From positions 9,569,501 through 9,633,500 of the forward strand of contig CP099848.1 of the NCBI GenBank assembly GCA_030062745.1: 64,000 bases of DNA. Reading direction: 5' to 3'. This DNA is from Capitulum mitella. Taxonomy: Eukaryota; Arthropoda; Thecostraca; Pollicipedomorpha; Pollicipedidae. A model generated the notes under the pieces. It had not been told where the DNA came from and did not search any database. It saw only the letters and a program-made list of their open reading frames with translations. Positions 8,246-50,550 of the stretch are shown in pieces; position 1 is the stretch's first letter, and the number at the start of each line of letters is the position of its first letter. Both the position numbers and the translations under genes were made by a program.

Positions 8246-9648
8246 CACCCTTGTGCAAATTAATTGAAACAAGCAATGAAAATAAGCTTAACAATAATTT
8301 TTTGTTATTCTAACCCTGTAGTTTATTATAGAACCGCACATACTGGCAGATTAGCAACGAATATGACCTCCTCTGTTTTCTAGCAGCATTTTGATACGGT
8401 TTGGCCTGGAGTCGACTAGTTTTGAACAGTCACTGATGATTTTCGGATCCCTGTACCATACTTGAATCAGCGCCTGAATGAGCTTTTCCATAGTTGTACA
8501 GTCCATAGCACGAAGTGGACTTTTGCATATGGCCCATAAATTCTCGATCGGATTTACATCCGGAGAGTTTCCGGGCCAATCAAGAATCTGTATTTGCCTC
8601 TCTGTCATGAAATTCTTCACTATCTTCGATGTGTGACACGGGGCAAGGTCCTGCTGAAAGATTCCGGTACCGTCAGGATACCTCCGTTCCAGCTCTGGAA
8701 CGACTCTCTTTCGAAGAACTTCTATGTATTGTGGAGAGCGCATCATTCCTTCGATTGACTGCAGGCTTCCGACACGGTAATAACTAAGCATCCCCAAAAC
8801 ATCTTCTGCGGGTGCTTGACACACTGATCGATGTGGGAATCACGAAACTTCTCTCCCAATGACCTGCGAACATGCTGGCTTCTCTGACCCTGTACCAAGA
8901 AATGGCTTTCGTCGCTGAAAAGGACTCTTCTCCACTGTTCTTTGGTCCATGTCTTGTACTTTTTTGCCCACTTATACCGTTTTTCTTTCATTGCTTTGGT
9001 TAAAAGTTGTTTTTTCACAGGTCTTCTGGCTTTTCGGCCAACTGCGATAAGGCGTCTGCGAACTGTAGAGGAACTAATTTGGATTCCTTTCTCCTTTAAA
9101 TCTGTATTCAATGCGTCGCTCGTCTTGCGAGGATCTTTTTTACTTTGTCGGAGTAAGTAAGCATCGTCTCTTGGAGTGGTTTTCTTCTTACGACCACACT
9201 TTCCTTTGCGTTTAGGAGAAACCGATCCAGTATCCTGTTTCAACTTGATGACACGACTGACGGTTGCAAGACTTACACCAACCACTGCAGCGATCTCTCT
9301 ATATGTCTTTGCCGTGTGTTCATGCAAAGTTACGATCTTTGTACGTTTTCTGGGCGTCACGTCCATCTTCGACAGTGGTCGACTAATGACTAATTTACTA
9401 TTGATTCATGAGACATGATTTATAAAATCTGATGCAATAGCGGCTGACGTAGTGATTGCATCAGCCAACTGTAATCAGCGCATGCGCAATGGTGAATTTT
9501 CCAAATGTGAATAAAAATCAGTCAAAACTGTTAGTTCATCAAAGATTGACGTCATAATGCATATATAAGTCATGATGAGCTGTTTTCGCTACGTAGTGAT
9601 AGGATTTCTGGAAAAAATGCTTTGTTTCAATTAATTTGCACAAGGGTG
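8246..9648 (-). mobile_element. Tc1-family DNA transposon, complete ends
   Basis: A 1.4-kb element with terminal inverted repeats of about 27-28 bp: the left end begins cacccttgtgcaaatt and the right end is its reverse complement (about 9621-9648). Both ends are flanked by TA (8244-8245 and 9649-9650), the target duplication expected of Tc1/mariner. The single transposase gene is on the minus strand and frameshifted, so this copy is non-autonomous, although the ends look intact enough to be mobilised in trans. Confidence 0.93.
8348..9366 (-). pseudogene. Tc1 transposase, single frameshift
   Basis: Begins at the ATG at 9366 (MDVTPRKRTK). The N-terminal half has the paired helix-turn-helix region (TYREIAAVVGVSLATVSRVI) and a basic GRKKKTTPRDD linker. 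The catalytic core follows: first Asp in FSDESHF, second Asp in QQDLAPCHTSK, and Glu in NSPDVNPIENLW, consistent with a DD34E Tc1 enzyme. The frame is lost at about 8790-8800, just after MFWGC, where one base appears missing; the rest continues in another frame to about 8351. Total length without the shift would be about 340 residues, the usual size. It would cut and paste DNA between TA sites. Confidence 0.92.
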
Positions 9649-14530: not shown

Positions 14531-15085
14531 CTAAATGTTAACATCTAATTCTGTACAATATTTATGAAATGTGCGCAACATTTCATAAACATCCTCAATT
14601 TTAGCGTCTTTGGCTTCTTCAACAATCGCCACTCGCGACGTGCTCGTATAGCAAACGCTGAATTTCGCGTCCGCGGCGATCGTTCCACTTCTCGTCTGCA
14701 TGGCGCACAGCGGGCTGCGGCATGAGGCCATTGGTCCAGTCCACTGCAGCCATCCACATGGGGTTGATGGGTTCCCCACAGTCCTCTACCAGGTTGTGGA
14801 GGACAGCTGCTGCCACTACCAACTTGGTTACTGTTCTGGCGTAATGTTCCGAACGTTTCAGAATCCGCCGCCAACGACATTTTAAGCGCCCAAATGTCTG
14901 TTCCACCACTACTCGAGCCCTGTTTAGTTTAATGTTGATTGCCTTCTGGGCGGGCGTCACCTGGCCACGGAAGCCCTTCACTAGCCAGGGTCGCAGGGGG
15001 TAAGCGGCATTCCCATCCACCAGGAGTGGGATGTCTTGGCCGCTAACCCTCACGTGGCCTTGTGAACACAAAGCAGCCTTAGCAG
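14531..15085 (-). pseudogene. PIF/Harbinger transposase C-terminal fragment
   Basis: The minus-strand frame at 15071-14619 shows the DDE nuclease half of a Harbinger transposase: LLVDGNAAYPLRPWL (an Asp in the usual GDxAYP position), then NRARVVVEQTFGRLKCRWRRI (the catalytic Glu region), then AAAVLHN. Upstream residues, including the first catalytic Asp and the HTH, are missing because an unrelated LINE fragment begins at about 15120. The C-terminus drifts into another frame. PIF/Harbinger elements normally also encode a MADF/Myb-like protein; a truncated MADF gene lies far away at 29.6 kb, with no evidence that the two belong together. Confidence 0.85.
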
Positions 15086-19730: not shown

Positions 19731-20099
19731 GAAATGCTGGCCGAAGTTGTTGGAGCGCCGGTAGGAAGGCCACTTGTCCTTGACCGATTGCCTTTCAGAG
19801 TTGGCTTCGGTTTGTCCTGGGTGTCATCCGCTTCGCTGTCGCGCGGCGGCACATTGAGAACAAGCGCGCACGAGAACAGGCGCGCACGGCGACAGGAGCA
19901 GCCGGCACGCCCACCGGAACAGTCAGAGCTAGCTCCGCCAGCTCTGACGCCTGCTGCATGCGTCGGTGTCGGGTGGCTGGGGACCCGATCGGTCCTCCGG
20001 ACAACGGGACCGCCGCCTTCCGATGCGGCGGACGCAAGAATCAAGGTGATGAAATCTGCACCTGTCATTTTTTCAGATCACTCATCGCGTGGTCTGAGG

Positions 20100-20515
20100 A
20101 CGGATTTCTCGCCTGGCGGTCGAAGGTTGGGCAGCAGTGTCATGATATGACTGGGTTCTGTGGGTCTCGTGACATTGTCGCCTCTCACCCATAGGGATAT
20201 ACGCTGTTTGTGCTTTAAGGCGAGAATTTCTTTTTCCGCGAAGAAGATGAGGCACCGGCGTGAAGGCGTGCCGTGGTCTGCATTGCAGTTCGCACATTTT
20301 AAGTGGTTGATGTGTATTTTCGGATCTGATGATCACCGTCTGCACGTCTGGTACATCTCTGGCGCTTCTACCACTTATCGATGAAGTGTTCCAAGATGTG
20401 ACATTTAAAACATCGCGACGGGTCCGGTACGTGACATTTCACGGTAACATGGCGTCCATTTCGCACGCCGGGGAGGTAAAACAGAGCTGCTGAATATGTT
20501 CAATGACTTGAAAGT
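20100..20515 (-). pseudogene. LINE ORF1 relic adjoining the parvovirus insertion
   Basis: Minus-strand frames give the ORF1 knuckle region of an I-type LINE with stops: PDPSRCFKC, then remnants corresponding to the later knuckles, then a stretch ending near the Glu-Ile-Leu-Ala-Leu-Lys segment (about 20210-20235). It meets the presumed viral leader exon at about 20515, so a LINE has replaced the remainder of that viral gene. Confidence 0.55.
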
Positions 20516-20833
20516 TTCCTAAAATCTGAGATAGCATATTTGTTGCATCTACCAAGATCTTTCTTCCAGCTGCTCCGGTGGTGGAACGGGCAGTAATGTC
20601 GCCAGCGCCGAAATTATACTGCTCCCAGCTCTCGTCGAGAAGCAGATCACGTATGTCCGTTGGTGTAGAACTACGGACTGGCGCCCATCCTTCTTGAAGT
20701 ATATCGGCTCCGGCAGCTCCACTGGATACTTGGTCAGCACGCTGATCCTGAAACACAAATCACAGTACTGCACTTCACACTCTCATCTCTCAAAAAAAAA
20801 CTCCTAAACCACCGTTCACTCACTCACCTGCAT
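20439..20833 (-). pseudogene. Viral leader: mini-exon, 80-nt intron and start of a second exon (truncated)
   Basis: In viral sense, just inside palindrome H1, lies an ATG plus one codon (20833-20828) followed at once by a consensus donor (gtgagtgag from 20827). A pyrimidine-rich acceptor ending in CAG lies at 20750-20748. The frame after the acceptor is open for about 75 codons (to about 20520) before LINE ORF1 sequence takes over. The protein is not recognisable; by position it should be the N-terminus of a non-structural protein of a second viral copy. An arthropod-type initiator (tcagtc, 20864-20859) precedes the ATG by about 30 bases. Confidence 0.45.
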
Positions 20834-20883
20834 GTTCACGCTACGACTCCTCGAACAAGACTGACCAAAAAAACGCCTGGTAA

Positions 20884-21024
20884 TCCGTCCTCAGCTGCTA
20901 GTTATCTGGGCCGGGGGGGGCCTTATCTTATCGCGGGATCTGCGTACGCAGATCGTGGCACGTACGTGCCACCCGCGATAAGATAAGGCCCCCCCGGCCC
21001 AGATAACTAGCAGCTGAGGACGGA
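20884..21024. repeat. T-shaped viral terminal palindrome H1
   Basis: 141 nt. The outer stem of about 53 bp (20884-20936 with 20973-21024) is perfect apart from one extra G in a G/C tract. At its tip are two perfect 18-nt palindromes, gatctgcgtacgcagatc (20937-20954) and gtggcacgtacgtgccac (20955-20972). This is the A-BB'-CC'-A' layout of a parvovirus T-shaped telomere, which serves as replication primer and carries the terminal resolution site in a live virus. Confidence 0.93.
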
Positions 21025-21034
21025 CGTTTTTTTT

Positions 21035-21102
21035 CATTCTAACGGCCGGCGGGCACGTACGTGACCGCGGCCCGGCGTACGCCGGGCCCGGCCGTTAGAA
21101 TG
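21035..21102. repeat. T-shaped viral terminal palindrome H2
   Basis: 68 nt. The stem is 14 bp (21035-21048 with 21089-21102); the tip arms are gcgggcacgtacgtgaccgc (21049-21068, one mismatch) and ggcccggcgtacgccgggcc (21069-21088, perfect). The arm cores (cacgtacgtg and gcgtacgc) are the same as in H1 but in swapped order, as expected if H2 is the inverted counterpart of H1. It lies on the VP side and is separated from H1 by a short T-rich spacer. Confidence 0.9.
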
Positions 21103-21331
21103 ATGTGAAGCTGAATATGCTATTTTTTAACTGAGACCGGATAAGCAGGCGTCTTTTTTGAACTGATGAGATGAACAGTACTTTTACCTTTTTTCTAGCA
21201 GATGTGACATCTGAGGCACCTCTCCTCTCTCCAAAAAAAACAAATTAAACCACTCCACTCTTCATCACCACAACTCCGTCCTGAACACACCTCACGTAGT
21301 CACATCTCCCAAAAACTACTTCTTTTTACCG

Positions 21332-21337
21332 TTTATT
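21332..21337 (-). terminator. Poly(A) signal of the viral VP unit
   Basis: AATAAA on the minus strand, a few bases after the VP stop codon. A compact arrangement typical of small DNA viruses. Confidence 0.65.
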
Positions 21338-21342
21338 CATCT

Positions 21343-22347
21343 TCACTCATACGCCGAGAACATATGCACATTTTTCACCAGCGTCTTAGTACCATCCGTA
21401 TACTTCTCCACATCCTTCATCTTACACAGACTATCATCATAATTACGCCTACACGCCCGCGAATGAAACAAACGGGTCACCATCTCCATTTTCGTCGTCA
21501 GCATACACCTCACATGCGTCTTCAAACTCGGATCTAACTGTTTAACACGCAAATACACAGCCGTTGGATCAAAATCACGTCTCATTTGCGGCGGATCCAC
21601 ACCATCCGACGGTCCATCTGGCATATAGCCCTTCTGATAGAAAGGAAAAAGAACATGCTCTGACATATTCCAACTATACCAACGATCCGCAAGAGGATGT
21701 ATAGTCCAGCCTTTATGATCAGGCCCCTGAATAACTCCTCTATTATTGAAACACTGAGCAGTACTAGCATCCGTCTTCAACATTACATCTCCATTTGCAT
21801 TTTTCATCGAATTAGTCAAATCTACAGTAGCCAAACCACCATCTTTTTCTAAATACTTCCATTCTTCATCTTCATCATAAGAAGTAGACTCAAAACAACC
21901 ACCTGTATCTGTAGCCCACTCCAATTCCGCTACCGGATTAGCATGCTTCGTTGTTACAGTCGTATTTCCACCGCTCATTTCCGTCACATCAAATCCACGT
22001 ACTTCTCCAATACTCTTTGTAGCAGACAAAATCTTACATCCCTGATGCTCTGTCAAGTTCTTATACATCTGTTCCATTCCTCCAAAGATTGCATTCTTCC
22101 CATCAAGTTTATAAGCCTCCACCACATATTCACGCGCGTTCACCAAAGGGAGAATATAGTATTTTCCGACATCCAGCGGCTTCAGCAACAAGTCATGTAT
22201 AGTAGTCACAGTAAACTTCACAACGCGCTCCGGTCCTTGATGCGTTGACACTACATCATACGCGCCGATCGCCCCGACTTCGCGATTGTTGTCCTGCTGT
22301 TCACTCCTCGCCGTCACCTTCTGTCTCTTCATCGGAGGCTCCGCCAT
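21343..22347 (-). CDS. Endogenous parvovirus capsid protein (VP)
   Basis: An uninterrupted frame of 334 residues from the ATG at 22347 (MAEPPMKRQK, with an early basic stretch) to the stop at 21343. The product would be a single-jelly-roll capsid protein. I see no phospholipase A2 motif and no glycine-rich N-terminal run within this ATG-initiated frame. The absence of PLA2 and the short length fit Hamaparvovirinae better than Parvovirinae. The open frame extends upstream of the ATG to a consensus splice acceptor (CAG at 22398-22396), so a slightly longer spliced form is possible. Identification rests on position after NS1, length and the viral termini; no capsid motif is decisive alone. Confidence 0.72.
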   Translation of the reverse strand: MAEPPMKRQKVTARSEQQDNNREVGAIGAYDVVSTHQGPERVVKFTVTTIHDLLLKPLDVGKYYILPLVNAREYVVEAYKLDGKNAIFGGMEQMYKNLTEHQGCKILSATKSIGEVRGFDVTEMSGGNTTVTTKHANPVAELEWATDTGGCFESTSYDEDEEWKYLEKDGGLATVDLTNSMKNANGDVMLKTDASTAQCFNNRGVIQGPDHKGWTIHPLADRWYSWNMSEHVLFPFYQKGYMPDGPSDGVDPPQMRRDFDPTAVYLRVKQLDPSLKTHVRCMLTTKMEMVTRLFHSRACRRNYDDSLCKMKDVEKYTDGTKTLVKNVHMFSAYE

Positions 22348-22395
22348 CTCCGGTACCGTTGGAACCCACGATCCACGTGGACGACTCCCTCCTGC

Positions 22396-22612
22396 CTGTG
22401 AGAAGAAGAACAGAGCAGTCTAAAATATTTCTTTTCTGTAGATGTGACACCTGACGCCCCACCTCACACCAGCACCAACTGTTGATGATGAGTAGAATCG
22501 TCTAATTCCGTTTTTTCTAGCAGATGTGACAACTGAGACACTCTCTGACCTTCTTCCTAATTGGAAAATCAAAAACACCACCTTTCCCAGCCATACCAAA
22601 CAACCAACTAAC
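22396..22612 (-). promoter_or_regulatory. Candidate NS-VP intron of the endogenous parvovirus
   Basis: In viral sense, a donor-like cag/gttagt occurs at 22615-22607, overlapping the NS1 stop codon (22610-22608). A long pyrimidine tract ending in CAG lies at 22396, 48 bases before the VP ATG. Splicing between them would remove the NS1 stop and about 217 nt. Two copies of a repeated 27-bp motif lie inside. Splicing is inferred from consensus only. Confidence 0.4.
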
Positions 22613-23790
22613 CTGTGATCCGTCGAACCTCCGTATTTATGGCATGCCTGTGCCGTTTATAGAGACCCCACCAGTCCTCTGGTGAGATCATGCCAGGCGG
22701 CTCAGCAATGGTCCAACTCCCACCTCGGTCGCCACGGCTACGGACCTCGAGATTAAACTCGAACGTCTTCGTCCGCGACTGAAGGGCATCCCGGTCAGCA
22801 TCCTGCAAGAATCCTCCCAGACGGTTGTTGGTCGATGCAAAGATAGGCACTCTACCGAGCACCTCCGGCGTGTTTTGATACTTCACAGCGACATGCATCA
22901 CTTCTCCTCCCAACAACTTTTTAAAGTCGTCCTTATTACATTCAGAGACCGTAATCTCCTCCATGACACCCAGATGCGAGTTCAAAAGCTGAGCCAAGTA
23001 GAAGGGCGAGTTCGCATTCATCGCTGACAAACGCGTCGGCTCTCGCAGCTTCAGCAAACTGTCGATGATCAACGTCTTTCCAGACGTCGTCTTCCCAAAC
23101 AGCAGCAGCGTGTTCACCTTCGTCAGCATCCCATCTGCAATCACTTCAACCCAAGCCAAAAACTTAGGCACATTGATCTTGTTCTTCGTCAACAACAGAC
23201 TCAACCAAGCCTCATTGTCAGTCATAGGATGAGTCTCATCGTCCAAAAACTCATTGTAGAACGTCTCCCAGAACCTCTCTCCTTTCAGTTTCATGATTTT
23301 CTGAGTTGCACGATACTCAATGATCGTCCTGACACGTTCCTTGAAACTACTTGTCAATCCGTAGAGAGTCTTGAACTCATCCAAGTTGATAACTTTCATA
23401 AAAGCACCAACTGAGCTCACCTTGTAACGGTCACACAAACCGTTTATATAGTCCACTTCGTTTCCAGGCGGAGCGGCTCTCTTCTTCCTCCGGTTGCGAG
23501 CTCCTTCAGCACGGGTATGATTTCTATCACCCATGTTTGGGACACACTCCTGTGGCAAACTTCCGTCAACCTCATCACCACCACAGTTCACGAGCCACTG
23601 CAACACCTTCTTCACAAACTTTACTGCGGCGTGCGATGGATTATGTACACTGATCTGAGCCACTCCGTACCTGGCGAGATACACCAGCCAGCGGGTAATT
23701 GACCTGACAACCTGGAACGTAAGTCCGAGTCTGTCGAGCTCGTCCTTGCTGAGGCCGAGGCGCTGGCCGATCCATCGGAGACAGACTGCC
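22608..23790 (-). pseudogene. NS1: Endogenous parvovirus NS1, helicase half, 5'-truncated by a LINE
   Basis: Open from the LINE junction (about 23778) to the stop at 22608. The SF3 helicase is clear: Walker A GKTTSGKT (about residue 250 of the open frame), Walker B with the EE pair (VMEEIT), the B' segment (LLGGEVMHVAVKYQ) and sensor IFASTNN. A basic RNRRKK stretch earlier could be a nuclear signal. The apparent Met and the next dozen residues come from antisense LINE sequence, so the real N-terminus with the HUH endonuclease is lost. NS1 normally nicks and unwinds the hairpin termini. No stops or frameshifts occur in what remains, which suggests recent integration. Confidence 0.85.
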
Positions 23791-25723
23791 TCGCTCTGTA
23801 GGAAGGTCACTGTTCGTCGACGATCTGGCAGTATGGTGTAAGGCGTCCAGTGCTATCTCGATGGAGAGGCAGTTGCAGCTGGCCGTCGGCCGCTTGGAGA
23901 AGTGGAGCCTGGCAAATGGCTTCCGTTTCTCGACGTCAAAAACAGTTGCGTGCCACTTTTGCCGCTCTCGCCGTGGCTGTCCCGCTTTATCTGTGCAACT
24001 GTACGGGAAACTGATTCCGTCGGAGCCAGTAGTGCGGTTTCTTGGACTGCAATTTGACAAACGATTGACGTACAGGGACCATTTTAAATCGCTGCGTGAG
24101 AAGTGTTTTAAATCACTGAACGTTTTAAAGTGTGTCGCAGGTACATCGTACGGTGCGGACAGAGTGACGTTGCTCCGTCTATACAGATCCCTGATTCGCT
24201 CTAAGTTGGACTATGCTTGTTTTGTGTATGACTCTGCATGCGATTCCAGCAAGCGTACGTTGGACACAGTGCACAACTCTGCCTTGCGCATTGCTACGGG
24301 TGCCTTCAGAACGTCTCCCACCGCTAGTATCTTGGTGGAAGCTAATGAGCCACCCCTGGCTTTGCGACGGAAGGTGCTCGGGCTGCGGTATGCATGCAAG
24401 TTAGCTCAGTTCCCCGACCACCCGACATATGAGGCGGTGTTTTCTTCCAGCACAATAGCCCTTTTTCGCACCGGACGATCTCTGAAAGCCACTCCTTTCT
24501 GTGTGAGAGTCCATGACCTGTTAATTGAGAGCGGTGTGCGACTGAGGTCCGTGGCACGTTCTTACGATCTAGACATACCTCCCTGGGAACTGGTGTCCCC
24601 TGTGGTCGACGTGTCTTTGGCTGAGAACCGGAAGCGCGACGTGGCCCCGGAGGAGTTACGGTGCAGAGCACTGGAGCACATGGCATCCTACGATGGCCAT
24701 ATGACTGCTTTCACCGATGGATCGAGGACGGAGGCTGGTGTGGGCTGTGCTTTCGTGTGTGGCCCTGACACTCGGTCATTTACTTTGCCACCTCATGCAT
24801 CGGTTTATACGTCGGAACTCGTGGCTATCGACAAGGCGCTGTGTTTCATTGAGGCAAGCGACGATGGTTTTTACGTACTTTTTACAGACTCGCTGAGTAG
24901 CCTTTTAGCGCTGAAGTGTTTCCATCCGCGTCATCCCCTTATACAGGATATTTTAAGACGATTGACAGCGTTAGACCGACATGGAAAGAGAGTGACGTTC
25001 TGTTGGATCCCCAGCCACGTGGGGATATCTGGCAACGAACGAGCCGATGCAGCCGCGAAGCGTGCGTCACGCATGTGTGTGACGCGACGAATGTCATTGC
25101 CTGCCAAGGACTTTTATCGTGTGTTTTCGTCATATATGTATGACTTGTGGCAACGTGAGTGGGATGCGCTCGGTCCAAATAAGCTCAAAAGTATTAAACC
25201 CCGCCTAGGAACTTGGGCCTCAAGTTCACGCGAAAACCGGCGAGAGGAGGTTATTCTCTGCCGTTTGCGCCTAGGCCACACATACGTAACGCATCACCAT
25301 CTGTTAAAGGGCGAAGAGAGAGGGATGTGCCCCCGCTGCAGTGAGCCCCTCACTGTGCACCATGTGCTGATCACATGCAATGGTTTGACTTCAGAGCGTT
25401 TGCGGCACTTTGGCCACAGTACGACTCCTCGCACTTTGCAGGATTTGCTGAGTGACGAGTCTCGTTTTATAGAGACGGGACAGTTGTTCCGGTTTTTGTT
25501 GGATGTCGGTTTTTCTGCGGTGTTTTCACGCTACTAGTCACATGTGTTTTATTTTGTGTATGCTGTTGTAGGCAACTTTTTTGTCTTGACATAATTGCGC
25601 TATATTACGCCGTCGGATTTTATTAATCGTCGTGACTCTTTTTAATGGAGCTACTTGAAGAAGTTATGGGCGCCGAATGACCCTGCAGTCGGTGCGCCCC
25701 TAAGCCCCAATAACCAACCAACC
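23779..25723 (+). mobile_element. LINE family B copy 1 (5'-truncated, upstream half of dimer 1)
   Basis: Begins inside the RT domain (acagactgcctcgctctg) directly at the viral NS1 boundary and ends with the family stem-loop and ccaaccaacc tail. Its ORF2 remnant (to the stop at 25537) is open through the RT end, RNase H and CCHC. It is followed without spacer DNA by copy 2. Confidence 0.93.
23861..25537 (+). pseudogene. LINE B copy 1 ORF2 fragment (RT end, RNase H, CCHC)
   Basis: An open frame of 558 residues from an internal Met just after the RT catalytic box. It carries the RT thumb region, RNase H (AFTDGSRTEAG, TSELVAIDKA, FTDSLSSLL, NERADAAAK with the IPSHVG His) and CPRCSEPLTVHHVLITC. 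It lacks the endonuclease and most of RT, so it cannot mobilise itself. Confidence 0.9.
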
Positions 25724-28700
25724 CGTTTCCCGCTTTTACCTTTTACCCGACCTTATGGTATGTTCGTGGACTGTGGGTGCGCCAGACTGGGCTCTTCGAG
25801 CGTTGCCATTTGCTGTGCCTCAGACAAAACTTTTTTAGTCTCAAAGGTTACAGCATATTTCGTCGCGACGAGCCAGTCGACACCGTTGCGCACGGTGGGG
25901 TCCTACTAGCCGTTCACCATGGTGTTCCCACCCAGCGGCTCGACGTGCGCGCTGATGTGCAGGCTGTGGCAGTGAGGTCGCACTTGGGACGCCGTCAAGT
26001 AACACTGTGCTCAGTGTATTTGGCGCCTGGTTGTGTTTTTCCCACGTTGGAGCTCCGGCGTCTGGTTGCACAGCTGCCTGCACCTTTCCTGCTTTTAGGT
26101 GATTTTAATGCTCACCATACTAATTGGGGTTGCGACAACACCGACACACGTGGTCGACTTTTAGAAAGCTTGTTGAACGACGAATCACTATGTCTTTTAA
26201 ATACTGGAGCCAAAACACATTTTACTTTGCCTTCCGGACAAACATCGGCTCTAGACCTGAGCATTTGTAGCCCACAGATGATGCAGTACTTGACGTGGTC
26301 GGTGGATGACGACCCATGCGGAAGCGATCACTTGCCAGTATGGCTGCACTATAAGGACGGTGCCGTGCTCGGCTCAAGGCCACCACGGTGGTTGCTTCGG
26401 TGTGCTGACTGGGGCCAATTTGAGGAAGAGGTTGAATTGGCCGTGCGTTGGCGTCAGCCGGAGGAGCGTCCGATGTCGGTGGACGAATTTACCGAGATGA
26501 TCGTGCAGTCAGCCGGACAAAGCATCCCCAAAACATCTGGTGCTCCCCGCCGCCCACCAGTGCCATGGTGGACGAAAGCGTGTAGAGACGCCATTCGTAC
26601 ACGCAGGCGAGCTTACAGGGCATTCGATCGTTGCAGTACACTTGATAATTTGATCGCTTTTCGACAAGCGAGGGCCTCGGCACGCCGTGTTATCTTGGAG
26701 GCGAAACGGCGGTCATGGCGAGAGTATGTGGGCGGCCTGAACCGCTCCACCCGCACTTCGGAGGTCTGGGACCGCATCAAGAGGATAGGGGGCCGACATT
26801 GCTCTGCGCCGCTGCCCGTGCTGCGCGTGCACGGCCATGACGTGTTTCACCCTGCTGACGTTGCCAACGAGATCGGCCGCGCCCTCGCAGAGCGCTGCCG
26901 GGGTGGCGGCGCCGATCCTGAGTTTGTGCGTCACAAAACTCGCTGTGAGCGGTCGCCAGTGAACTTTTATACCTCTGAGCAGCACTCGTATAACGAAGTG
27001 TTCACAATGGCTGAACTCAGGTCAGCAATATCGTCCTTGCGCAGTGTGTCGGAGGGCCCAGACGAAGTGCATAACGATATGCTTCGACACCTTCCACATT
27101 GCGCGGTTGAGACACTGTTGACTATGTTCAATGCGATTTGGACCCGTGGCGAGTTCCCGTTGGCCTGGCGAGAGGCCATCGTCATCCCACTGTGCAAGCC
27201 CGGCAAGAGTGGTTTAAACCCTCTTGATTATCGTCCCATATCTCTGACATCTTCCTTGTGTAAACTTTTGGAGAAGATGGTTAACCTCCGCCTGACCTGG
27301 TTTTTAGAGAAGAATAACGTGTTTGACAATGCTCAGTGCGGTCTCCGGAAAAACCGTAGTACTGTGGACCACCTTTTAGCCCTAGACACAGCAGTGCGTG
27401 TTGCTTTTCGGGAACGACGTCATGTGGGAGGTGTGTTTTTTGACATCGAGGGTGCATACGACACGACGTGGCGACACGGCATTCTCTTGAAGGCCTTTGG
27501 GCAAGGTATTCGTGGTCGTATGGGCGTCTTTTTACAGAACTACTTGGATGACCGTTTTTTCCGTGTTCGTGTAGGAAAGCACTTTTCTGACCGGTTTCTG
27601 CAGGTGAACGGCGTGCCTCAGGGTGGTGTGTTAAGTGTGACACTCTTTGCCATTATGATTAACGATGTGGTAGACAGACTGCCTCGCTCTGTAGGAAGGT
27701 CACTGTTCGTCGACGATCTGGCAATATGGTGTAAGGCGTCCAGTGCTATCTCGATGGAGAGGCAGTTGCAGCTGGCCGTCGGCCGCTTGGAGAAGTGGAG
27801 CCTGGCAAATGGCTTCCGTTTCTCGACGTCAAAAACAGTTGCGTGCCACTTTTGCCGCTCTCGCCGTGGCTGTCCCGCTTTATCTGTGCAACTGTACGGG
27901 AAACTGATTCCGTCGGAGCCAGTAGTGCGGTTTCTTGGACTGCAATTTGACAAACGATTGACGTACAGGGACCATTTTAAATCGCTGCGTGAGAAGTGTT
28001 TTAAATCACTGAACGTTTTAAAGTGTGTCGCAGGTACATCGTACGGTGCGGACAGAGTGACGTTGCTCCGTCTATACAGATCCCTGATTCGCTCTAAGTT
28101 GGACTATGCTTGTTTTGTGTATGACTCTGCATGCGATTCCAGCAAGCGTACGTTGGACACAGTGCACAACTCTGCCTTGCGCATTGCTACGGGTGCCTTC
28201 AGAACGTCTCCCACCGCTAGTATCTTGGTGGAAGCTAATGAGCCACCCCTGGCTTTGCGACGGAAGGTGCTCGGGCTGCGGTATGCATGCAAGTTAGCTC
28301 AGTTCCCCGACCACCCGACATATGAGGCGGTGTTTTCTTCCAGCACAATAGCCCTTTTTCGCACCGGACGATCTCTGAAAGCCACTCCTTTCTGTGTGAG
28401 AGTCCATGACCTGTTAATTGAGAGCGGTATGCGACTGAGGTCCGTGGCACGTTCTTACGATCTAGACATACCTCCCTGGGAACTGGTGTCCCCTGTGGTG
28501 GACGTGTCTTTGGCTGAGAACCGGAAGCGCGACGTGGCCCCGGAGGAGTTACGGTGCAGAGCACTGGAGCACATGGCATCCTACGATGGCCATATGACTG
28601 CTTTCACCGATGGATCGAGGACGGAGGCTGGTGTGGGCTGTGCTTTCGTGTGTGGCCCTGACACTCGGTCATTTACTTTGCCACCTCATGCATCGGTTTA

Positions 28701-29620
28701 TACGTCGGAACTCGTGGCTATCGACAAGGCGCTGTGTTTCATTGAGGCAAGCGACGATGGTTTTTACGTACTTTTTACAGACTCGCTGAGTAGCCTTTTA
28801 GCGCTGAAGTGTTTCCATCCGCGTCATCCCCTTATACAGGATATTTTAAGACGATTGACAGCGTTAGACCGACATGGAAAGAGAGTGACGTTCTGTTGGA
28901 TCCCCAGCCACGTGGGGATATCTGGCAACGAACGAGCCGATGCAGCCGCGAAGCGTGCGTCACGCATGTGTGTGACGCGACGAATGTCATTGCCTGCCAA
29001 GGACTTTTATCGTGTGTTTTCGTCATATATGTATGACTTGTGGCAACGTGAGTGGGATGCGCTCGGTCCAAATAAGCTCAAAAGTATTAAACCCCGCCTA
29101 GGAACTTGGGCCTCAAGTTCACGCGAAAACCGGCGAGAGGAGGTTATTCTCTGCCGTTTGCGCCTAGGCCACACATACGTAACGCATCACCATCTGTTAA
29201 AGGGCGAAGAGAGAGGGATGTGCCCCCGCTGCAGTGAGCCCCTCACTGTGCACCATGTGCTGATCACATGCAATGGTTTGACTTCAGAGCGTTTGCGGCA
29301 CTTTGGCCACAGTACGACTCCTCGCACTTTGCAGGATTTGCTGAGTGACGAGTCTCGTTTTATAGAGACGGGACAGTTGTTCCGGTTTTTATTGGATGTC
29401 GGTTTTTCTGCGGTTTTTTCACGCTACTAGTCACATGTGTTTTATTTTGTGTATGCTGTTGTAGGTAACTTTTTTGTCTTGACATAATTGCGTTATATTA
29501 CGCCGTCGGATTTTATTAATCGTCGTGACTCTTTTTAATGGAGCTACTTGAAGAAGTTATGGGCGCCGAATGACCCTGCAGTCGGTGCGCCCCTAAGCCC
29601 CAATAACCAACCAACCAACC
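25724..29620 (+). mobile_element. LINE family B copy 2 (downstream half of dimer 1)
   Basis: Starts right after copy 1's tail. The first 130 bases look like a thinned version of the copy 4 start with many small gaps; from about 25850 on the copy is nearly identical to copies 4 and 5. It ends with the stem-loop and an extended ccaaccaaccaacc tail at 29620, where the MADF gene begins. Confidence 0.92.
25777..29430 (+). CDS. LINE B copy 2 ORF2, endonuclease N-terminus corrupted
   Basis: 1217 open residues. From FSLKGYSIFRRDEP onward the sequence matches the intact copy 4: endonuclease GDFNAHHTNWG and SDHLPV, RT YRPISLTS, FDIEGAYD, PQGGVLS and FVDD, then RNase H and CCHC. The first about 25 residues do not match; the family start (LQWNCRGV and the catalytic Glu in LQETK) is absent, so the endonuclease should be inactive if this sequence is correct. 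The defect may be an assembly error because the body is otherwise pristine. Confidence 0.88.
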   Translation: MRQTGLFERCHLLCLRQNFFSLKGYSIFRRDEPVDTVAHGGVLLAVHHGVPTQRLDVRADVQAVAVRSHLGRRQVTLCSVYLAPGCVFPTLELRRLVAQLPAPFLLLGDFNAHHTNWGCDNTDTRGRLLESLLNDESLCLLNTGAKTHFTLPSGQTSALDLSICSPQMMQYLTWSVDDDPCGSDHLPVWLHYKDGAVLGSRPPRWLLRCADWGQFEEEVELAVRWRQPEERPMSVDEFTEMIVQSAGQSIPKTSGAPRRPPVPWWTKACRDAIRTRRRAYRAFDRCSTLDNLIAFRQARASARRVILEAKRRSWREYVGGLNRSTRTSEVWDRIKRIGGRHCSAPLPVLRVHGHDVFHPADVANEIGRALAERCRGGGADPEFVRHKTRCERSPVNFYTSEQHSYNEVFTMAELRSAISSLRSVSEGPDEVHNDMLRHLPHCAVETLLTMFNAIWTRGEFPLAWREAIVIPLCKPGKSGLNPLDYRPISLTSSLCKLLEKMVNLRLTWFLEKNNVFDNAQCGLRKNRSTVDHLLALDTAVRVAFRERRHVGGVFFDIEGAYDTTWRHGILLKAFGQGIRGRMGVFLQNYLDDRFFRVRVGKHFSDRFLQVNGVPQGGVLSVTLFAIMINDVVDRLPRSVGRSLFVDDLAIWCKASSAISMERQLQLAVGRLEKWSLANGFRFSTSKTVACHFCRSRRGCPALSVQLYGKLIPSEPVVRFLGLQFDKRLTYRDHFKSLREKCFKSLNVLKCVAGTSYGADRVTLLRLYRSLIRSKLDYACFVYDSACDSSKRTLDTVHNSALRIATGAFRTSPTASILVEANEPPLALRRKVLGLRYACKLAQFPDHPTYEAVFSSSTIALFRTGRSLKATPFCVRVHDLLIESGMRLRSVARSYDLDIPPWELVSPVVDVSLAENRKRDVAPEELRCRALEHMASYDGHMTAFTDGSRTEAGVGCAFVCGPDTRSFTLPPHASVYTSELVAIDKALCFIEASDDGFYVLFTDSLSSLLALKCFHPRHPLIQDILRRLTALDRHGKRVTFCWIPSHVGISGNERADAAAKRASRMCVTRRMSLPAKDFYRVFSSYMYDLWQREWDALGPNKLKSIKPRLGTWASSSRENRREEVILCRLRLGHTYVTHHHLLKGEERGMCPRCSEPLTVHHVLITCNGLTSERLRHFGHSTTPRTLQDLLSDESRFIETGQLFRFLLDVGFSAVFSRY

Positions 29621-30441
29621 TGGCAAAAGCTGCGCCTCACCGGATCACCTTCCTGTGAGCGCTGGAAAAAATCCTTGGTGAGAAGGAACAGTTGATTCTG
29701 CTGGTCCCCAGCCTGACGGAGCTGGTCAGCTAACTGCTCCTGCCGAGACGCCTTCTTTTTGTCATTTGTGGAAGGATCAGGCGTAGTTTCTGTGGCGGAC
29801 TGAGGGGCCACGGGAGTGCTGTTCGTAGGCTGGAAGTTGTACTGGTTGGGTGTGTCTGACTCCTCGCTCGGACCTCCCAGGGTGGATGAGGTTGACGTAC
29901 CGATCTTCTCTTTAATGGAGACGAGGGGCCTTGAACTGCGTCTGCTTGTGATGAAAGGCTGTAGGAAGTTGAGCTGAGCCATTATCCACTTATCGCGATC
30001 ACTGTGCTCGTTGGCGCCCGACCCAGATTTCTTCATGTCCTTGAGGAGCTTTCCGTATCTAGTGCGGATTGAGTCATACCAGACCTCCAGGTCCTCTTTG
30101 GTACGGCTCAGCTTCGCTGCTTGTTTCGTCCAGGCGCTGTCTCTTAGATGACGATCGTGATAAAGTTTCCGCTTTTTGTCGTACAAGAACGCATTCTCAC
30201 GCAAGAACTCGATCATCTCGTCTTCCTCTTGCTCGGAAAGCTGAGGGCGCGTGCGTGCTTTCTTCGCGAGTGGCGGGCCAGCCCCCATGGTGGCTGTTCT
30301 CTCGTCTGCCATAGCCTCCTCCATGTCCGCTTGCCCAGATGAGCCGTCACCGCCACCGGAGTCAGATGGAGGAGGTGGTGGTGGTGAGTTACAGGAGGAG
30401 GTTTTGGTCGCTCTCGTCTTGCTTCTCTTCACCTTTGACAT
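29621..30441 (-). pseudogene. MADF-domain protein gene, 3'-truncated by LINE
   Basis: Begins at the ATG at 30441 (MSKVKRSKTR). A proline/glycine-rich N-terminus is followed by a MADF (Adf-1/Myb-SANT-like) DNA-binding domain at about residues 75-165, with FLRENAFLYDKK, a conserved Trp in SAWTK, and YDSIRTRYGKLLKD. A Ser/Thr/Pro-rich linker and a Gln-rich helical segment come next, then the frame runs into the 3' end of LINE copy 2 (last eight codons antisense LINE). MADF proteins are either host transcription factors or the accessory DNA-binding protein of PIF/Harbinger transposons; the repeat-rich upstream region favours the second. Confidence 0.78.
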
Positions 30442-30459
30442 TCTGATTGCTGGAAAGAA

Positions 30460-30727
30460 ATGCGACAGCGAATTTGACCGATGCTCTCCCTCGGACTGTG
30501 GGAGGCAGACTGAACGGTAGGACAGTTTTTATGGGAACGTTCTGGAAGCGGTAATGGAATGGTTTGGACGGTATTGGAACGGCCGGGACCTTGTAAGATC
30601 GTTGTTGGAAAGGTAACGGAACGTTACGAGAGTGTAAGCAAAGACGGGAACGGCTCAGGATCGTTGGGGCATCGGTATGGGAGCGGGAGGGCACGGTATG
30701 AGAGCACTATTGCAACGGAACGCATTT
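30460..30727. repeat. GGAACGG-type oligomer cluster, left arm
   Basis: A region upstream of the MADF gene in which variants of ggaacgg, gggaacg and aacggta occur many times, all in the same orientation. After the LINE dimer the cluster resumes with the complementary word (36546-36800). Possibly subterminal binding sites of a DNA transposon. Confidence 0.6.
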
Positions 30728-30739
30728 TATGGCCGTTCT

Positions 30740-32380
30740 GAGAAGTGGAGCCTGGCAAATGGCTTCCGTTTCTCGACGTCAAAAACAGTTGCGTGCCACT
30801 TTTGCCGCTCTCGCCGTGGCTGTCCCGCTTTATCTGTGCAACTGTACGGGAAACTGGTTCCGTCGGAGCCAGTAGTGCGGTTTCTTGGACTGCAATTTGA
30901 CAAACGATTGACGTACAGGGACCATTTTAAATCGCTGCGTGAGAAGTGTTTTAAATCACTGAACGTTTTAAAGTGTGTCGCAGGTACATCGTACGGTGCG
31001 GACAGAGTGACGTTGCTCCGTCTATACAGATCCCTGATTCGCTCTAAGTTGGACTATGCTTGTTTTGTGTATGACTCTGCATGCGATTCCAGCAAGCGTA
31101 CGTTGGACACAGTGCACAACTCTGCCTTGCGCATTGCTACGGGTGCCTTCAGAACGTCTCCCACCGCTAGTATCTTGGTGGAAGCTAATGAGCCACCCCT
31201 GGCTTTGCGACGGAAGGTGCTCGGGCTGCGGTATGCATGCAAGTTAGCTCAGTTCCCCGACCACCCGACATATGAGGCGGTGTTTTCTTCCAGCACAATA
31301 GCCCTTTTTCGCACCGGACGATCTCTGAAAGCCACTCCTTTCTGTGTGAGAGTCCATGACCTGTTAATTGAGAGCGGTGTGCGACTGAGGTCCGTGGCAC
31401 GTTCTTACGATCTAGACATACCTCCCTGGGAACTGGTGTCCCCTGTGGTCGACGTGTCTTTGGCTGAGAACCGGAAGCGCGACGTGGCCCCGGAGGAGTT
31501 ACGGTGCAGAGCACTGGAGCACATGGCATCCTACGATGGCCATATGACTGCTTTCACCGATGGATCGAGGACGGAGGCTGGTGTGGGCTGTGCTTTCGTG
31601 TGTGGCCCTGACACTCGGTCATTTACTTTGCCACCTCATGCATCGGTTTATACGTCGGAACTCGTGGCTATCGACAAGGCGCTGTGTTTCATTGAGGCAA
31701 GCGACGATGGTTTTTACGTACTTTTTACAGACTCGCTGAGTAGCCTTTTAGCGCTGAAGTGTTTCCATCCGCGTCATCCCCTTATACAGGATATTTTAAG
31801 ACGATTGACAGCGTTAGACCGACATGGAAAGAGAGTGACGTTCTGTTGGATCCCCAGCCACGTGGGGATATCTGGCAACGAACGAGCCGATGCAGCCGCG
31901 AAGCGTGCGTCACGCATGTGTGTGACGCGACGAATGTCATTGCCTGCCAAGGACTTTTATCGTGTGTTTTCGTCATATATGTATGACTTGTGGCAACGTG
32001 AGTGGGATGCGCTCGGTCCAAATAAGCTCAAAAGTATTAAACCCCGCCTAGGAACTTGGGCCTCAAGTTCACGCGAAAACCGGCGAGAGGAGGTTATTCT
32101 CTGCCGTTTGCGCCTAGGCCACACATACGTAACGCATCACCATCTGTTAAAGGGCGAAGAGAGAGGGACGTGCCCCCGCTGCAGTGAGCCCCTCACTGTG
32201 CACCATGTGCTGATCACATGCAATGGTTTGACTTCAGAGCGTTTGCGGCACTTTGGCCACAGTACGACTCCTCGCACTTTGCAGGATTTGCTGAGTGACG
32301 AGTCTCGTTTTATAGAGACGGGACAGTTGTTCCGGTTTTTATTGGATGTCGGTTTTTCTGCGGTTTTTTCACGCTACTAG
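30740..32380 (+). pseudogene. LINE B copy 3 ORF2 fragment (RT end, RNase H, CCHC)
   Basis: Open to the stop at 32380. LINE sequence starts at gagaagtggagcctgg, after the RT active site. RNase H and the C-terminal CCHC are intact and nearly identical to copies 1 and 5, including Val in ESGVRLRS, where copies 2 and 4 have Met. The open frame also continues upstream into flanking DNA by chance. Confidence 0.9.
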
Positions 32381-32631
32381 TCACATGTGTTTTATTTTGT
32401 GTATGCTGTTGTAGGTAACTTTTTTGTCTTGGCATAATTGCGTTATATTACGCCGTCGGATTTTATTAATCGTCGTGACTCTTTTTAATGGAGCTACTTG
32501 AAGAAGTTATGGGCGCCGAATGACCCTGCAGTCGGTGCGCCCCTAAGCCCCAATAACCAACCAACCGACGCTTCTTTTATATCCCGGGACGCTGTGTTTT
32601 AAGACCCTTTTAACCCGACCTTATACAGGTC

Positions 32632-35600
32632 ATGTTACAGTGGAACTGTAGAGGTGTTAGGTCGAGCGCCAGTGATCTGCAGGCTCTTCTGAGACGGCGT
32701 TGCCCATTTGCTGTTGGCCTCCAGGAGACAAAACTGGCATCAAACACTTGTTTTAGTCTCAAAGGTTACAGCATATTTCGTCGCGACGAGCCAGTCGACA
32801 CCGTTGCGCACGGTGGGGTCCTACTAGCCGTTCACCATGGTGTTCCCACCCAGCGGCTCGACGTGCGCGCTGATGTGCAGGCTGTGGCAGTGAGGTCGCA
32901 CTTGGGACGCCGTCAAGTAACACTGTGCTCAGTGTATTTGGCGCCTGGTTGTGTTTTTCCCACGTTGGAGCTCCGGCGTCTGGTTGCACAGCTGCCTGCA
33001 CCTTTCCTGCTTTTAGGTGATTTTAATGCTCACCATACTAATTGGGGTTGCGACAACACCGACACACGTGGTCGACTTTTAGAAAGCTTGTTGAACGACG
33101 AATCACTGTGTCTTTTAAATACTGGAGCCAAAACACATTTTACTTTGCCTTCCGGACAAACATCGGCTCTAGACCTGAGCATTTGTAGCCCACAGATGAT
33201 GCAGTACTTGACGTGGTCGGTGGATGACGACCCATGCGGAAGCGATCACTTGCCAGTATGGCTGCACTATAAGGACGGTGCCGTGCTCGGCTCAAGGCCA
33301 CCACGGTGGTTGCTTCGGTGTGCTGACTGGGGCCAATTTGAGGAAGAGGTTGAATTGGCCGTGCGTTGGCGTCAGCCGGAGGAGCGTCCGATGTCGGTGG
33401 ACGAATTTACCGAGATGATCGTGCAGTCAGCCGGACAAAGCATCCCCAAAACATCTGGTGCTCCCCGCCGCCCACCAGTGCCATGGTGGACGAAAGCGTG
33501 TAGAGACGCCATTCGTACACGCAGGCGAGCTTACAGGGCATTCGACCGTTGCAGTACACTTGATAATTTGATCGCTTTTCGACAAGCGAGGGCCTCGGCA
33601 CGCCGTGTTATCTTGGAGGCGAAACGGCGGTCATGGCGAGAGTATGTGGGCGGCCTGAACCGCTCCACCCGCACTTCGGAGGTCTGGGACCGCATCAAGA
33701 GGATAGGGGGCCGACATTGCTCTGCGCCGCTGCCCGTGCTGCGCGTGCACGGCCATGACGTGTTTCACCCTGCTGACGTTGCCAACGAGATCGGCCGCGC
33801 CCTCGCAGAGCGGTGCCGGGGTGGCGGCGCCGATCCTGAGTTTGTGCGTCACAAAACTCGCTGTGAGCGGTCGCCAGTGAACTTTTATACCTCTGAGCAG
33901 CACTCGTATAACGAAGTGTTCACAATGGCTGAACTCAGGTCAGCAATATCGTCCTTGCGCAGTGTGTCGGAGGGCCCAGACGAAGTGCATAACGATATGC
34001 TTCGACACCTTCCACATTGCGCGGTTGAGACACTGTTGACTATGTTCAATGCGATTTGGACCCGTGGCGAGTTCCCGTTGGCCTGGCGAGAGGCCATCGT
34101 CATCCCACTGTGCAAGCCCGGCAAGAGTGGTTTAAACCCTCTTGATTATCGTCCCATATCTCTGACATCTTCCTTGTGTAAACTTTTGGAGAAGATGGTT
34201 AACCTCCGCCTGACCTGGTTTTTAGAGAAGAATAACGTGTTTGACAATGCTCAGTGCGGTCTCCGGAAAAACGGTAGTACTGTGGACCACCTTTTAGCCC
34301 TAGACACAGCAGTGCGTGTTGCTTTTCGGGAACGACGTCATGTGGGAGGTGTGTTTTTTGACATCGAGGGTGCATACGACACGACGTGGCGACACGGCAT
34401 TCTCTTGAAGGCCTTTGGGCAAGGTATTCGTGGTCGTATGGGCGTCTTTTTACAGAACTACTTGGATGACCGTTTTTTCCGTGTTCGTGTAGGAAAGCAC
34501 TTTTCTGACCGGTTTCTGCAGGTGAACGGCGTGCCTCAGGGTGGTGTGTTAAGTGTGACACTCTTTGCCATTATGATTAACGATGTGGTAGACAGACTGC
34601 CTCGCTCTGTAGGAAGGTCACTGTTCGTCGACGATCTGGCAATATGGTGTAAGGCGTCCAGTGCTATCTCGATGGAGAGGCAGTTGCAGCTGGCCGTCGG
34701 CCGCTTGGAGAAGTGGAGCCTGGCAAATGGCTTCCGTTTCTCGACGTCAAAAACAGTTGCGTGCCACTTTTGCCGCTCTCGCCGTGGCTGTCCCGCTTTA
34801 TCTGTGCAACTGTACGGGAAACTGGTTCCGTCGGAGCCAGTAGTGCGGTTTCTTGGACTGCAATTTGACAAACGATTGACGTACAGGGACCATTTTAAAT
34901 CGCTGCGTGAGAAGTGTTTTAAATCACTGAACGTTTTAAAGTGTGTCGCAGGTACATCGTACGGTGCGGACAGAGTGACGTTGCTCCGTCTATACAGATC
35001 CCTGATTCGCTCTAAGTTGGACTATGCTTGTTTTGTGTATGACTCTGCATGCGATTCCAGCAAGCGTACGTTGGACACAGTGCACAACTCTGCCTTGCGC
35101 ATTGCTACGGGTGCCTTCAGAACGTCTCCCACCGCTAGTATCTTGGTGGAAGCTAATGAGCCACCCCTGGCTTTGCGACGGAAGGTGCTCGGGCTGCGGT
35201 ATGCATGCAAGTTAGCTCAGTTCCCCGACCACCCGACATATGAGGCGGTGTTTTCTTCCAGCACAATAGCCCTTTTTCGCACCGGACGATCTCTGAAAGC
35301 CACTCCTTTCTGTGTGAGAGTCCATGACCTGTTAATTGAGAGCGGTATGCGACTGAGGTCCGTGGCACGTTCTTACGATCTAGACATACCTCCCTGGGAA
35401 CTGGTGTCCCCTGTGGTGGACGTGTCTTTGGCTGAGAACCGGAAGCGCGACGTGGCCCCGGAGGAGTTACGGTGCAGAGCACTGGAGCACATGGCATCCT
35501 ACGATGGCCATATGACTGCTTTCACCGATGGATCGAGGACGGAGGCTGGTGTGGGCTGTGCTTTCGTGTGTGGCCCTGACACTCGGTCATTTACTTTGCC

Positions 35601-36348: not shown

Positions 36349-36478
36349 TCACATGTGTTTTATTTTGTGTATGCTGTTGTAGGTAACTTTTTTGTCTTGA
36401 CATAATTGCGTTATATTACGCCGTCGGATTTTATTAATCGTCGTGACTCTTTTTAATGGAGCTACTTGAAGAAGTTAT

Positions 36479-36510
36479 GGGCGCCGAATGACCCTGCAGT
36501 CGGTGCGCCC
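36479..36510 (+). other. LINE B 3' UTR stem-loop
   Basis: The stem gggcgc/gcgccc (36479-36484 with 36505-36510) encloses cgaatgaccctgcagtcggt; the element ends shortly after with aagccccaataacc and a (ccaa)n tail. The same hairpin ends every family B copy here, and a related one ends LINE C and the 53.2-kb copy. It is the likely recognition structure for the RT. Confidence 0.7.
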
Positions 36511-36545
36511 CTAAGCCCCAATAACCAACCAACTATGGCCGTTCT

Positions 36546-50366: not shown

Positions 50367-50550
50367 TCACATGTGTTTTATTTTGTGTATGCTGTTGTAG
50401 GTAACTTTTTTGTCTTGACATAATTGCGTTATAATACGCCGTCGGATTTTATTAATCGTCGTGACTCTTTTTAATGGAGCTACTTGAAGAAGTTATGGGC
50501 GCCGAATGACCCTGCAGTCGGTGCGCCCCTAAGCCCCAATAACCAACCAA

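What the first reader, a model, noticed from the sequence alone, without database searches (positions are those of the whole stretch)
20884..21102. Two T-shaped parvovirus telomeres preserved back to back
H1 (20884-21024) has a stem of about 53 bp with two perfect 18-nt arm palindromes. H2 (21035-21102) has a 14-bp stem with two 20-nt arms. Arm cores (cacgtacgtg and gcgtacgc) are shared but in swapped order, as expected for inverted terminal repeats. Integrated parvoviruses usually lose their hairpins, so two intact ones joined by a 10-base spacer suggest integration of a concatemer or circularised replication form.
Basis: partly seen in the sequence, partly recalled or inferred. Interest (0 to 1): 0.92.

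Follow-up and report, generated by a model that had tools for sequence, protein, structure and literature searches.

The report
Joined telomeres of endogenous parvoviruses
Two intact T-shaped parvovirus genome ends sit back to back inside an animal genome, marking a spot where the tail of one integrated virus meets the head of the next, and the same genome holds more such joints.

Summary
H1 and H2 fold into two T-shaped hairpins (z -20.7). The "10-base spacer" pairs with sequence inside H1 and is its outer stem, so the telomeres touch. On the minus strand the order is NS1 helicase, capsid gene, H2, H1, NS1 start: a right telomere joined head-to-tail to a left telomere, inside an endogenous parvovirus between LINE sequences.

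The window's own genome has at least 75 NS1 and 45 VP matches, about 30 telomere places, partial ones included, and an independent second back-to-back pair on C8. Array neighbours are different viruses: in 12 of 12 consecutive NS1 pairs synonymous sites are saturated, while symmetric telomere stems are nearly unmutated (6 mismatches, 847 pairs). Long-diverged genomes thus seem to have been joined recently, telomere to telomere. That favours joining at resident telomeres over a plain concatemer; the window's own pair cannot be typed. Head-to-tail endogenous densoviruses with terminal repeats are known from tapeworms, so this is a new variant of a known kind. A tick host is unsupported; a barnacle is likelier.

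The parts
20867..21033 (-). H1, left telomere (next to the NS1 start), outer poly(A/T) stem included; core T 20884-21024
21034..21103 (-). H2, right telomere, 240 bp behind the VP stop codon
21343..22347 (-). VP (capsid) gene, intact 334-aa frame; three homologues 63%, 52% and 59% identical, from unnamed sources; no Pfam family above cut-off
21332..21337 (-). polyadenylation signal AATAAA just behind VP
   Evidence: read by eye from the sequence printed
22608..23779 (-). NS1, helicase half only (P0001 residues 172-568, about 76% identical; Parvo_NS1 33.3 bits, PPV_E1_C 44.4 bits, both above cut-off). The half with the HUH motif is not in the window; the C-terminal tail may lie in another frame than in P0001 (22-residue match, E 0.54)
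20561..20833 (-). start of an NS1 gene: ATGCAG with splice donor GTGAGT at 20827 and acceptor at about 20748 (by eye), then a frame that in relative L010 runs on into NS1
21164..21220 (-). repeat block behind VP; further copies at 22429-22460 and 22486-22542 between NS1 and VP
23779..25722 (+). 5'-truncated LINE that begins where NS1 stops
20192..20451 (-). remnant of a LINE ORF1 (two stretches, E 6e-5) on the other side of the viral block

Best explanation
An endogenous parvovirus joint: the right telomere (H2) of one viral genome abuts the left telomere (H1) of a genome that follows in the same orientation. Shown: two T hairpins; a VP end on one side and an NS1 start on the other; LINE sequence on both outer sides; a second, independent back-to-back pair and several single or hybrid T joints in the same genome; array neighbours that are anciently diverged viruses although the telomere palindromes are nearly unmutated. 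Inferred: the joints arise when the NS1 of an infecting virus recognises a resident viral telomere (GTAC arm tips throughout; a TATCCG or AATCCG motif at the palindrome base in most pieces looked at), nicks it, and the incoming genome is joined there end to end, as is known for AAV Rep and reported for protoparvovirus DNA. Anatomy about 0.93; this mechanism about 0.45.
For: Folds. NS1 and VP homology; VP piece of relative L049 matches Pfam IHHNV_capsid, E 2.3e-4 but below the cut-off. NS1-start frame shared with L010, 50 of 52 bases. Left and right ends share a direct repeat of 47 alignment columns, 0 of 300 shuffles. Genome survey. Of 30 hand-assembled telomere places, 20 lie behind a VP in VP orientation, 8 of these being VP-T-NS1 (3 of the 8 only half telomeres or stem pieces, 1 with NS1 1.3 kb away; 120). 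Saturated synonymous sites (pS 0.79 or more) in 12 of 12 consecutive helicase pieces within 8 kb, DNA identity 56-78%; 6 of the 12 with a telomere place between. 1 of 29 helicase pieces has a stop; 9 pairs with dS 0.05-1.5 have median dN/dS 0.049. 6 mismatches in 847 stem pairs of 12 symmetric T's. Unequal, hybrid-looking stems at C16:16124909 and 16121453.
Against: The two sides of the window pair cannot be typed, since this copy lacks the NS1 part that would overlap. H1 and H2 stems differ, which one heterotelomeric virus would also show. No nick site was tested; the base motif is absent in 3 of 10 junction pieces, two of the 7 that have it are copies of each other, and no chance expectation was computed. 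Palindromes can be kept perfect by gene conversion, and the detector stops a stem where mismatches pile up, so the stem count is biased towards perfect stems. The 29 helicase pieces were chosen for an unbroken match, which hides broken copies. Other telomere contexts among the 30: no viral gene within 1.6 kb on one side 13, VP-T-VP 4, NS1-T-NS1 3, NS1-T-VP 1, opposed 1. 6 of the 12 neighbour pairs have no telomere place found between. Only fetched loci were scanned for T shapes.
Confidence: 0.6

Rival explanations
1. Circularised monomer or head-to-tail concatemer of one heterotelomeric virus integrated; H2 and H1 are the two ends of the same genome, later opened inside NS1 and trimmed.
For: VP-H2-H1-NS1 start, with NS1 cut at both ends of the block, fits a permuted single genome. 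A bocavirus episome carries both non-identical termini head-to-tail (PMC3125170, passages). Several tapeworm densovirus loci are head-to-tail concatemers, and ITRs are retained there (PMC6880638, section 16).
Against: Consecutive units elsewhere in this genome are anciently diverged (12 of 12). Relatives L010 and L011 have the H2-type stem next to NS1, not the H1 type (by eye). L010 is 96% identical to the left-end piece (52 bases) but 85% to the NS1 of the other side, a weak hint of two viruses.
Confidence: 0.3
2. Clustering without telomere targeting: genomes pile up in EVE-tolerant regions such as piRNA clusters, selected for one orientation, and are joined end to end by ordinary repair.
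For: Adjacent matches within 3 kb: 75 same orientation, 9 opposite (this counts matches, including NS1 and VP of one unit and pieces of one gene). 11 of 12 consecutive helicase pieces have the same orientation. One-orientation EVE accumulation in piRNA clusters is recalled, from no call.
Against: Where a telomere lies next to VP or NS1 it is mostly at the proper genome end and at similar distances (about 170-350 bp behind most VPs), and some stems look like hybrids of two ends; random insertion would break units anywhere.
Confidence: 0.2
3. Assembly error at palindromes.
For: Palindromes are hard to assemble; the C2 copy lies beside a 500-N gap and could be an unplaced allele.
Against: The pair is assembled twice with small differences, another pair exists on C8, and single-T VP-T-NS1 joints are found on C13, C14 and C16. 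Reads were not available.
Confidence: 0.04
4. Old tandem duplication of one endogenous copy followed by divergence under host selection.
For: Long open frames and a low dN/dS (median 0.049 over 9 pairs).
Against: Synonymous saturation between neighbours together with nearly perfect palindromes, 15-111 stem pairs each.
Confidence: 0.06

Closest known systems
Endogenous densoviruses of Echinococcus multilocularis (EmuDNV; PMC6880638, section 16 read)
   Same: Many integrated copies, several as head-to-tail concatemers, retained inverted terminal repeats (stems 95-165 nt), NS1 with PPV_E1_C and Parvo_NS1 domains, VP of 321 aa
   Different: There the ITRs are described as a stem with a 37-nt loop and as versions of one sequence; here T-shaped ends of several types, back-to-back pairs, and neighbours from different lineages
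Human bocavirus 3 circular episome (PMC3125170, passages)
   Same: Both non-identical termini joined head-to-tail
   Different: Extrachromosomal, one virus; no integrated form found there
Rep- or NS1-directed integration of dependoparvoviruses and rodent protoparvovirus (seen as one passage of PMC5978394; Corsini 1997 itself not read)
   Same: Target shares binding and cutting sites with the viral hairpins
   Different: Here the inferred target is a telomere of a resident endogenous virus, and cutting is not shown
Bemisia tabaci ambidensovirus EVE with 5' ITR (PMC12297876, passages)
   Same: Endogenous copy that keeps a near-complete hairpin palindrome
   Different: One incomplete end, I-shaped virus telomere, no joint mentioned in the passages
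IHHNV EVEs of Penaeus monodon (PMC11357303 and PMC8982415, passages)
   Same: Crustacean genome, capsid family related by a weak Pfam match, rearranged parvoviral DNA
   Different: Described as lacking hairpins; jumbled fragments
Penaeus monodon metallodensovirus (PMC11357303, passages)
   Same: T-shaped hairpin of 161 nt, close to H1 in size
   Different: Its genes are said to lack similarity to other parvoviruses; relation to this virus not tested

Membership tests
Parvoviridae | NS1 with superfamily-3 helicase | tested here: met
   Parvo_NS1 33.3 bits against cut-off 20 (PPV_E1_C scores higher, 44.4 bits); the A1 profile matches chains named Rep40/Rep68, E1 and Non-structural protein 1
Parvoviridae | HUH nuclease domain in NS1 | tested here: inconclusive
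   Not in this copy (that half is missing); H-x-H kept in 30 of 30 own-genome matches that span the site
Parvoviridae | Hairpin telomeres | tested here: met
Parvoviridae | Jelly-roll capsid protein | tested here: inconclusive
   Window VP: no Pfam family above cut-off, no PDB match of the A2 profile, model of pLDDT 32; of 5 relatives scanned, 3 match IHHNV_capsid, best L049 at E 2.3e-4, 20.9 bits against cut-off 25
Parvoviridae | Linear ssDNA genome of 4-6 kb in a T=1 particle | not testable with these tools
   only integrated DNA is at hand
Hamaparvovirinae (Penstylhamaparvovirus) | Small VP of the IHHNV type | tested here: inconclusive
   334-aa VP; sub-threshold match only in relatives
Hamaparvovirinae (Penstylhamaparvovirus) | Direct terminal repeats instead of hairpins (as stated in a passage of PMC11357303) | tested here: not met
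   T-shaped hairpins; so not filed in this genus
Endogenous viral element | Viral sequence flanked by host DNA on both sides | tested here: met
   LINE from 23779, LINE ORF1 remnant at 20192-20451, window inside a 29.6-Mb contig; no reads were examined
Directed (telomere-targeted) integration | Nick site and NS1 binding site in the target | not tested
   Only a TATCCG/AATCCG motif in 7 of 10 junction pieces

The most novel reading that the evidence does not exclude
Telomeres of already endogenised parvoviruses act as landing sites: later, different parvoviruses insert at them end to end, building same-orientation arrays in which joints are single, hybrid or double T telomeres. The window pair is one such joint caught with both telomeres intact.
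Probability: 0.4. Interest if true: 0.86.

Novelty: new variant of a known kind. Interest (0 to 1): 0.72.

Why it matters
Complete parvovirus telomeres are hard to sequence and are rarely described from integrated copies. This genome holds about thirty telomere places of several types, partial ones included, so that telomere evolution can be read from host DNA. The joints are a natural record of how parvoviral genomes come to integrate next to each other, a question that also bears on AAV-type integration and on the origin of clusters of endogenous viruses.

Tried and rejected
Viral contig scans with the NS1 piece, the VP alignment and the NS1 alignment found no relative (the tool may leave out records near the window's own genome). 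A protein search with the left-end frame found nothing. Comparison of left-end frames with the P0001 N-terminus was not convincing (frames 0-2: 31, 96 and 237 of 300 shuffles as good; a wrongly framed version 17 of 500); the link came only from L010. The left end has no detectable repeat in the NS1-VP intergenic stretch. The VP structure model was useless. Foldback transposon or host satellite: rejected because of the flanking NS1 and VP. Missing NS1 half elsewhere in the window: not found with P0001. An own-genome search with window 20250-20640 to fix the host border was asked eight times and never answered; a search with the C14:20842564 telomere was asked once, not answered and not repeated. 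The first T-detector run gave wrong places for minus-strand loci, because I turned loci that had not been turned; corrected. The exact virus-host border between 20451 and 20561 is not known. Pairs of neighbours were first picked by hand (9 pairs) and then all counted (12 pairs); the report uses the latter.

Full report
Observation. Folding window 20860-21130 as DNA gives two T-shaped hairpins side by side, -126 kcal/mol against a shuffle mean of -45.6 (0 of 200 as good, z -20.7). H1 has 52 paired stem bases and two perfect 18-nt arms; H2 a stem of 15-16 bp, one perfect and one slightly imperfect arm. All four arm tips are CGTACG, and the arm order is swapped. The spacer belongs to H1: it pairs with 20867-20875 across an 8-nt bulge. 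So the two telomeres touch.

Surroundings. Read on the minus strand, the block holds the helicase half of NS1 (23779-22608), VP (22347-21343), a polyA signal, H2, H1 and an NS1 start. The NS1 piece passes the Parvo_NS1 and PPV_E1_C cut-offs; it is 76% identical to P0001 and 47% to a protein named NS-1 of Amphibalanus amphitrite. VP has three homologues at 52-63% identity and no Pfam family above cut-off; of five VP pieces from the same genome, three match IHHNV_capsid, the best (L049) at E 2.3e-4, all below the curated cut-off. A 5'-truncated LINE begins where NS1 stops, at 23779; on the other side LINE ORF1 remnants lie at 20192-20451 (E 6e-5). The part of NS1 with the HUH motif (in P0001 at residue 156) was not found in the window.

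The NS1 start. Behind H1 an ATGCAG is followed by a splice donor and, about 80 bases on, an acceptor (by eye). Its frame matches L010 over 52 bases with 2 differences, and in L010 that frame runs into the NS1 that P0001 resembles. A direct repeat of 47 alignment columns links the left-end intron to the region behind VP (score 39, shuffle maximum 31, 0 of 300). So both sides of the joint are viral, in head-to-tail order.

The genome. The window lies on C10 of a 477-Mb assembly of 16 contigs. The only named relative and the contig number suggest a thoracican barnacle; Capitulum mitella, for example, has 16 chromosomes and a 463-Mb assembly (passage of PMC8416341). This is an inference and was not tested. 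The tick guess found no support. The H1+H2 pair occurs again on C2 in a 5.9-kb copy, 99.5% identical, flank included, 1 base behind a 500-N gap: a segmental duplication or an unplaced allele, not a second integration.

More telomeres. P0001 finds 75 NS1 matches and VP 45 (lower bounds, and a broken gene counts more than once), mostly in clusters on C8, C13, C14 and C16. A detector for T shapes run on 45 fetched, partly overlapping loci (213 kb) found 16, four of them the window pair and its C2 copy; it found none in 60 kb of the window outside 20001-24000 and none in 20 simply shuffled loci. The arms listed all carry a GTAC tip. C8:16277302-16277584 is a second back-to-back pair, of another telomere type, between a VP end and an NS1 start (198 and 85 nt, z -32.8). 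Searches with telomere sequences added more places. Of 30 places that I assembled by hand, partial ones and the C2 copy included, 8 are VP-T-NS1 (three with only half telomeres or stem pieces, one with NS1 1.3 kb away), 8 VP-T-no viral gene within 1.6 kb, 5 no viral gene-T-NS1, 4 VP-T-VP, 3 NS1-T-NS1, 1 NS1-T-VP and 1 opposed. In that table the window pair counts as VP-T-no viral gene, because P0001 does not see the NS1 start, and the L011 joint as NS1-T-NS1, because its VP remnant is about 60 bases long.

What the arrays are. In a tree of 29 helicase pieces none of the seven two-row sister groups joins array neighbours, although three neighbours on C16 fall in one clade. All 12 consecutive pairs of these pieces within 8 kb of each other have saturated synonymous sites (pS 0.79 or more), 56-78% DNA identity and 57-94% protein identity; 11 of 12 have the same orientation, and a telomere place lies between in 6. 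The 9 pairs in the genome with dS between 0.05 and 1.5 have a median dN/dS of 0.049, and 1 of 29 pieces has a stop, though the pieces were chosen for an unbroken match. So they diverged as replicating viruses. The stems of 12 symmetric T's (C2 copy and two hybrids left out) carry 6 mismatches and 21 unpaired bases beside 847 pairs, which points to recent integration unless gene conversion repairs palindromes; the detector also stops a stem where mismatches pile up. Two T's on C16 have clearly unequal stem halves (4 mismatches each), and the L011 joint looks similar by eye, as if the right end of one virus had been joined to the left end of another inside the T.

Mechanism. Best fit: end-to-end joining at viral telomeres, probably by NS1 recognition of a resident telomere. 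A TATCCG or AATCCG motif is present in 7 of 10 junction pieces, by eye at the palindrome base; it is a candidate nick site that was not tested. Precedent for the chemistry: dependoparvovirus and rodent protoparvovirus DNA integrating at sites that share binding and cutting sites with viral hairpins (passage of PMC5978394). For the window pair alone, a circular or concatemeric form of one virus remains possible.

Comparison. Tapeworm densovirus copies already show head-to-tail concatemers and retained ITRs (PMC6880638, section 16); a whitefly EVE keeps one near-complete hairpin palindrome (PMC12297876, passages); a bocavirus episome joins both termini (PMC3125170, passages). In the listings I saw no title on endogenous parvoviruses of barnacles or on arrays of different parvoviruses joined at telomeres; those listings show part of the hits of a held open-access library only.

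Noticed in passing
G000 clusters C8:16.26-16.28 Mb, C13:13.09-13.15 and 21.67-21.68 Mb, C14:20.53-20.85 and 22.62-22.69 Mb, C16:16.12-16.13 Mb: Dense, mostly same-orientation arrays of parvoviral NS1 and VP genes; 15 of 45 VP matches lie in open frames of 470 aa or more without a stop in the match.
   Followed up: partly
L011 4060-5220 (C14:22680.6-22681.7 kb): Rearranged copy: inverted right end with a T of the opposite arm order, an NS1 piece fused to a VP end, a 137-nt tandem duplication, then a T and an NS1 start.
   Followed up: partly
window 21189-21220, 22429-22460, 22511-22542: A 32-nt block repeated behind NS1 and behind VP; perhaps a promoter or terminator element.
   Followed up: no
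window 23779-36533 and 46585-50554: Nearly identical copies of one LINE (mostly 98-99.6%) with AACC-rich 3' tails, some directly behind each other.
   Followed up: no
C13:13138341, 21670333, 21672681: Half telomeres or stem pieces 1-17 bp from an NS1 that starts near residues 352-407: a recurrent kind of deletion from the T into NS1.
   Followed up: no
C14:22624214-22624412 (L023): A left telomere of 199 nt with no viral gene match within 1.6 kb outside it; by eye it seems to end at its terminal base.
   Followed up: no
window 8351-9366 and 14619-15071: Frames that look like a Tc1-type and a PIF/Harbinger-type transposase (by eye only).
   Followed up: no
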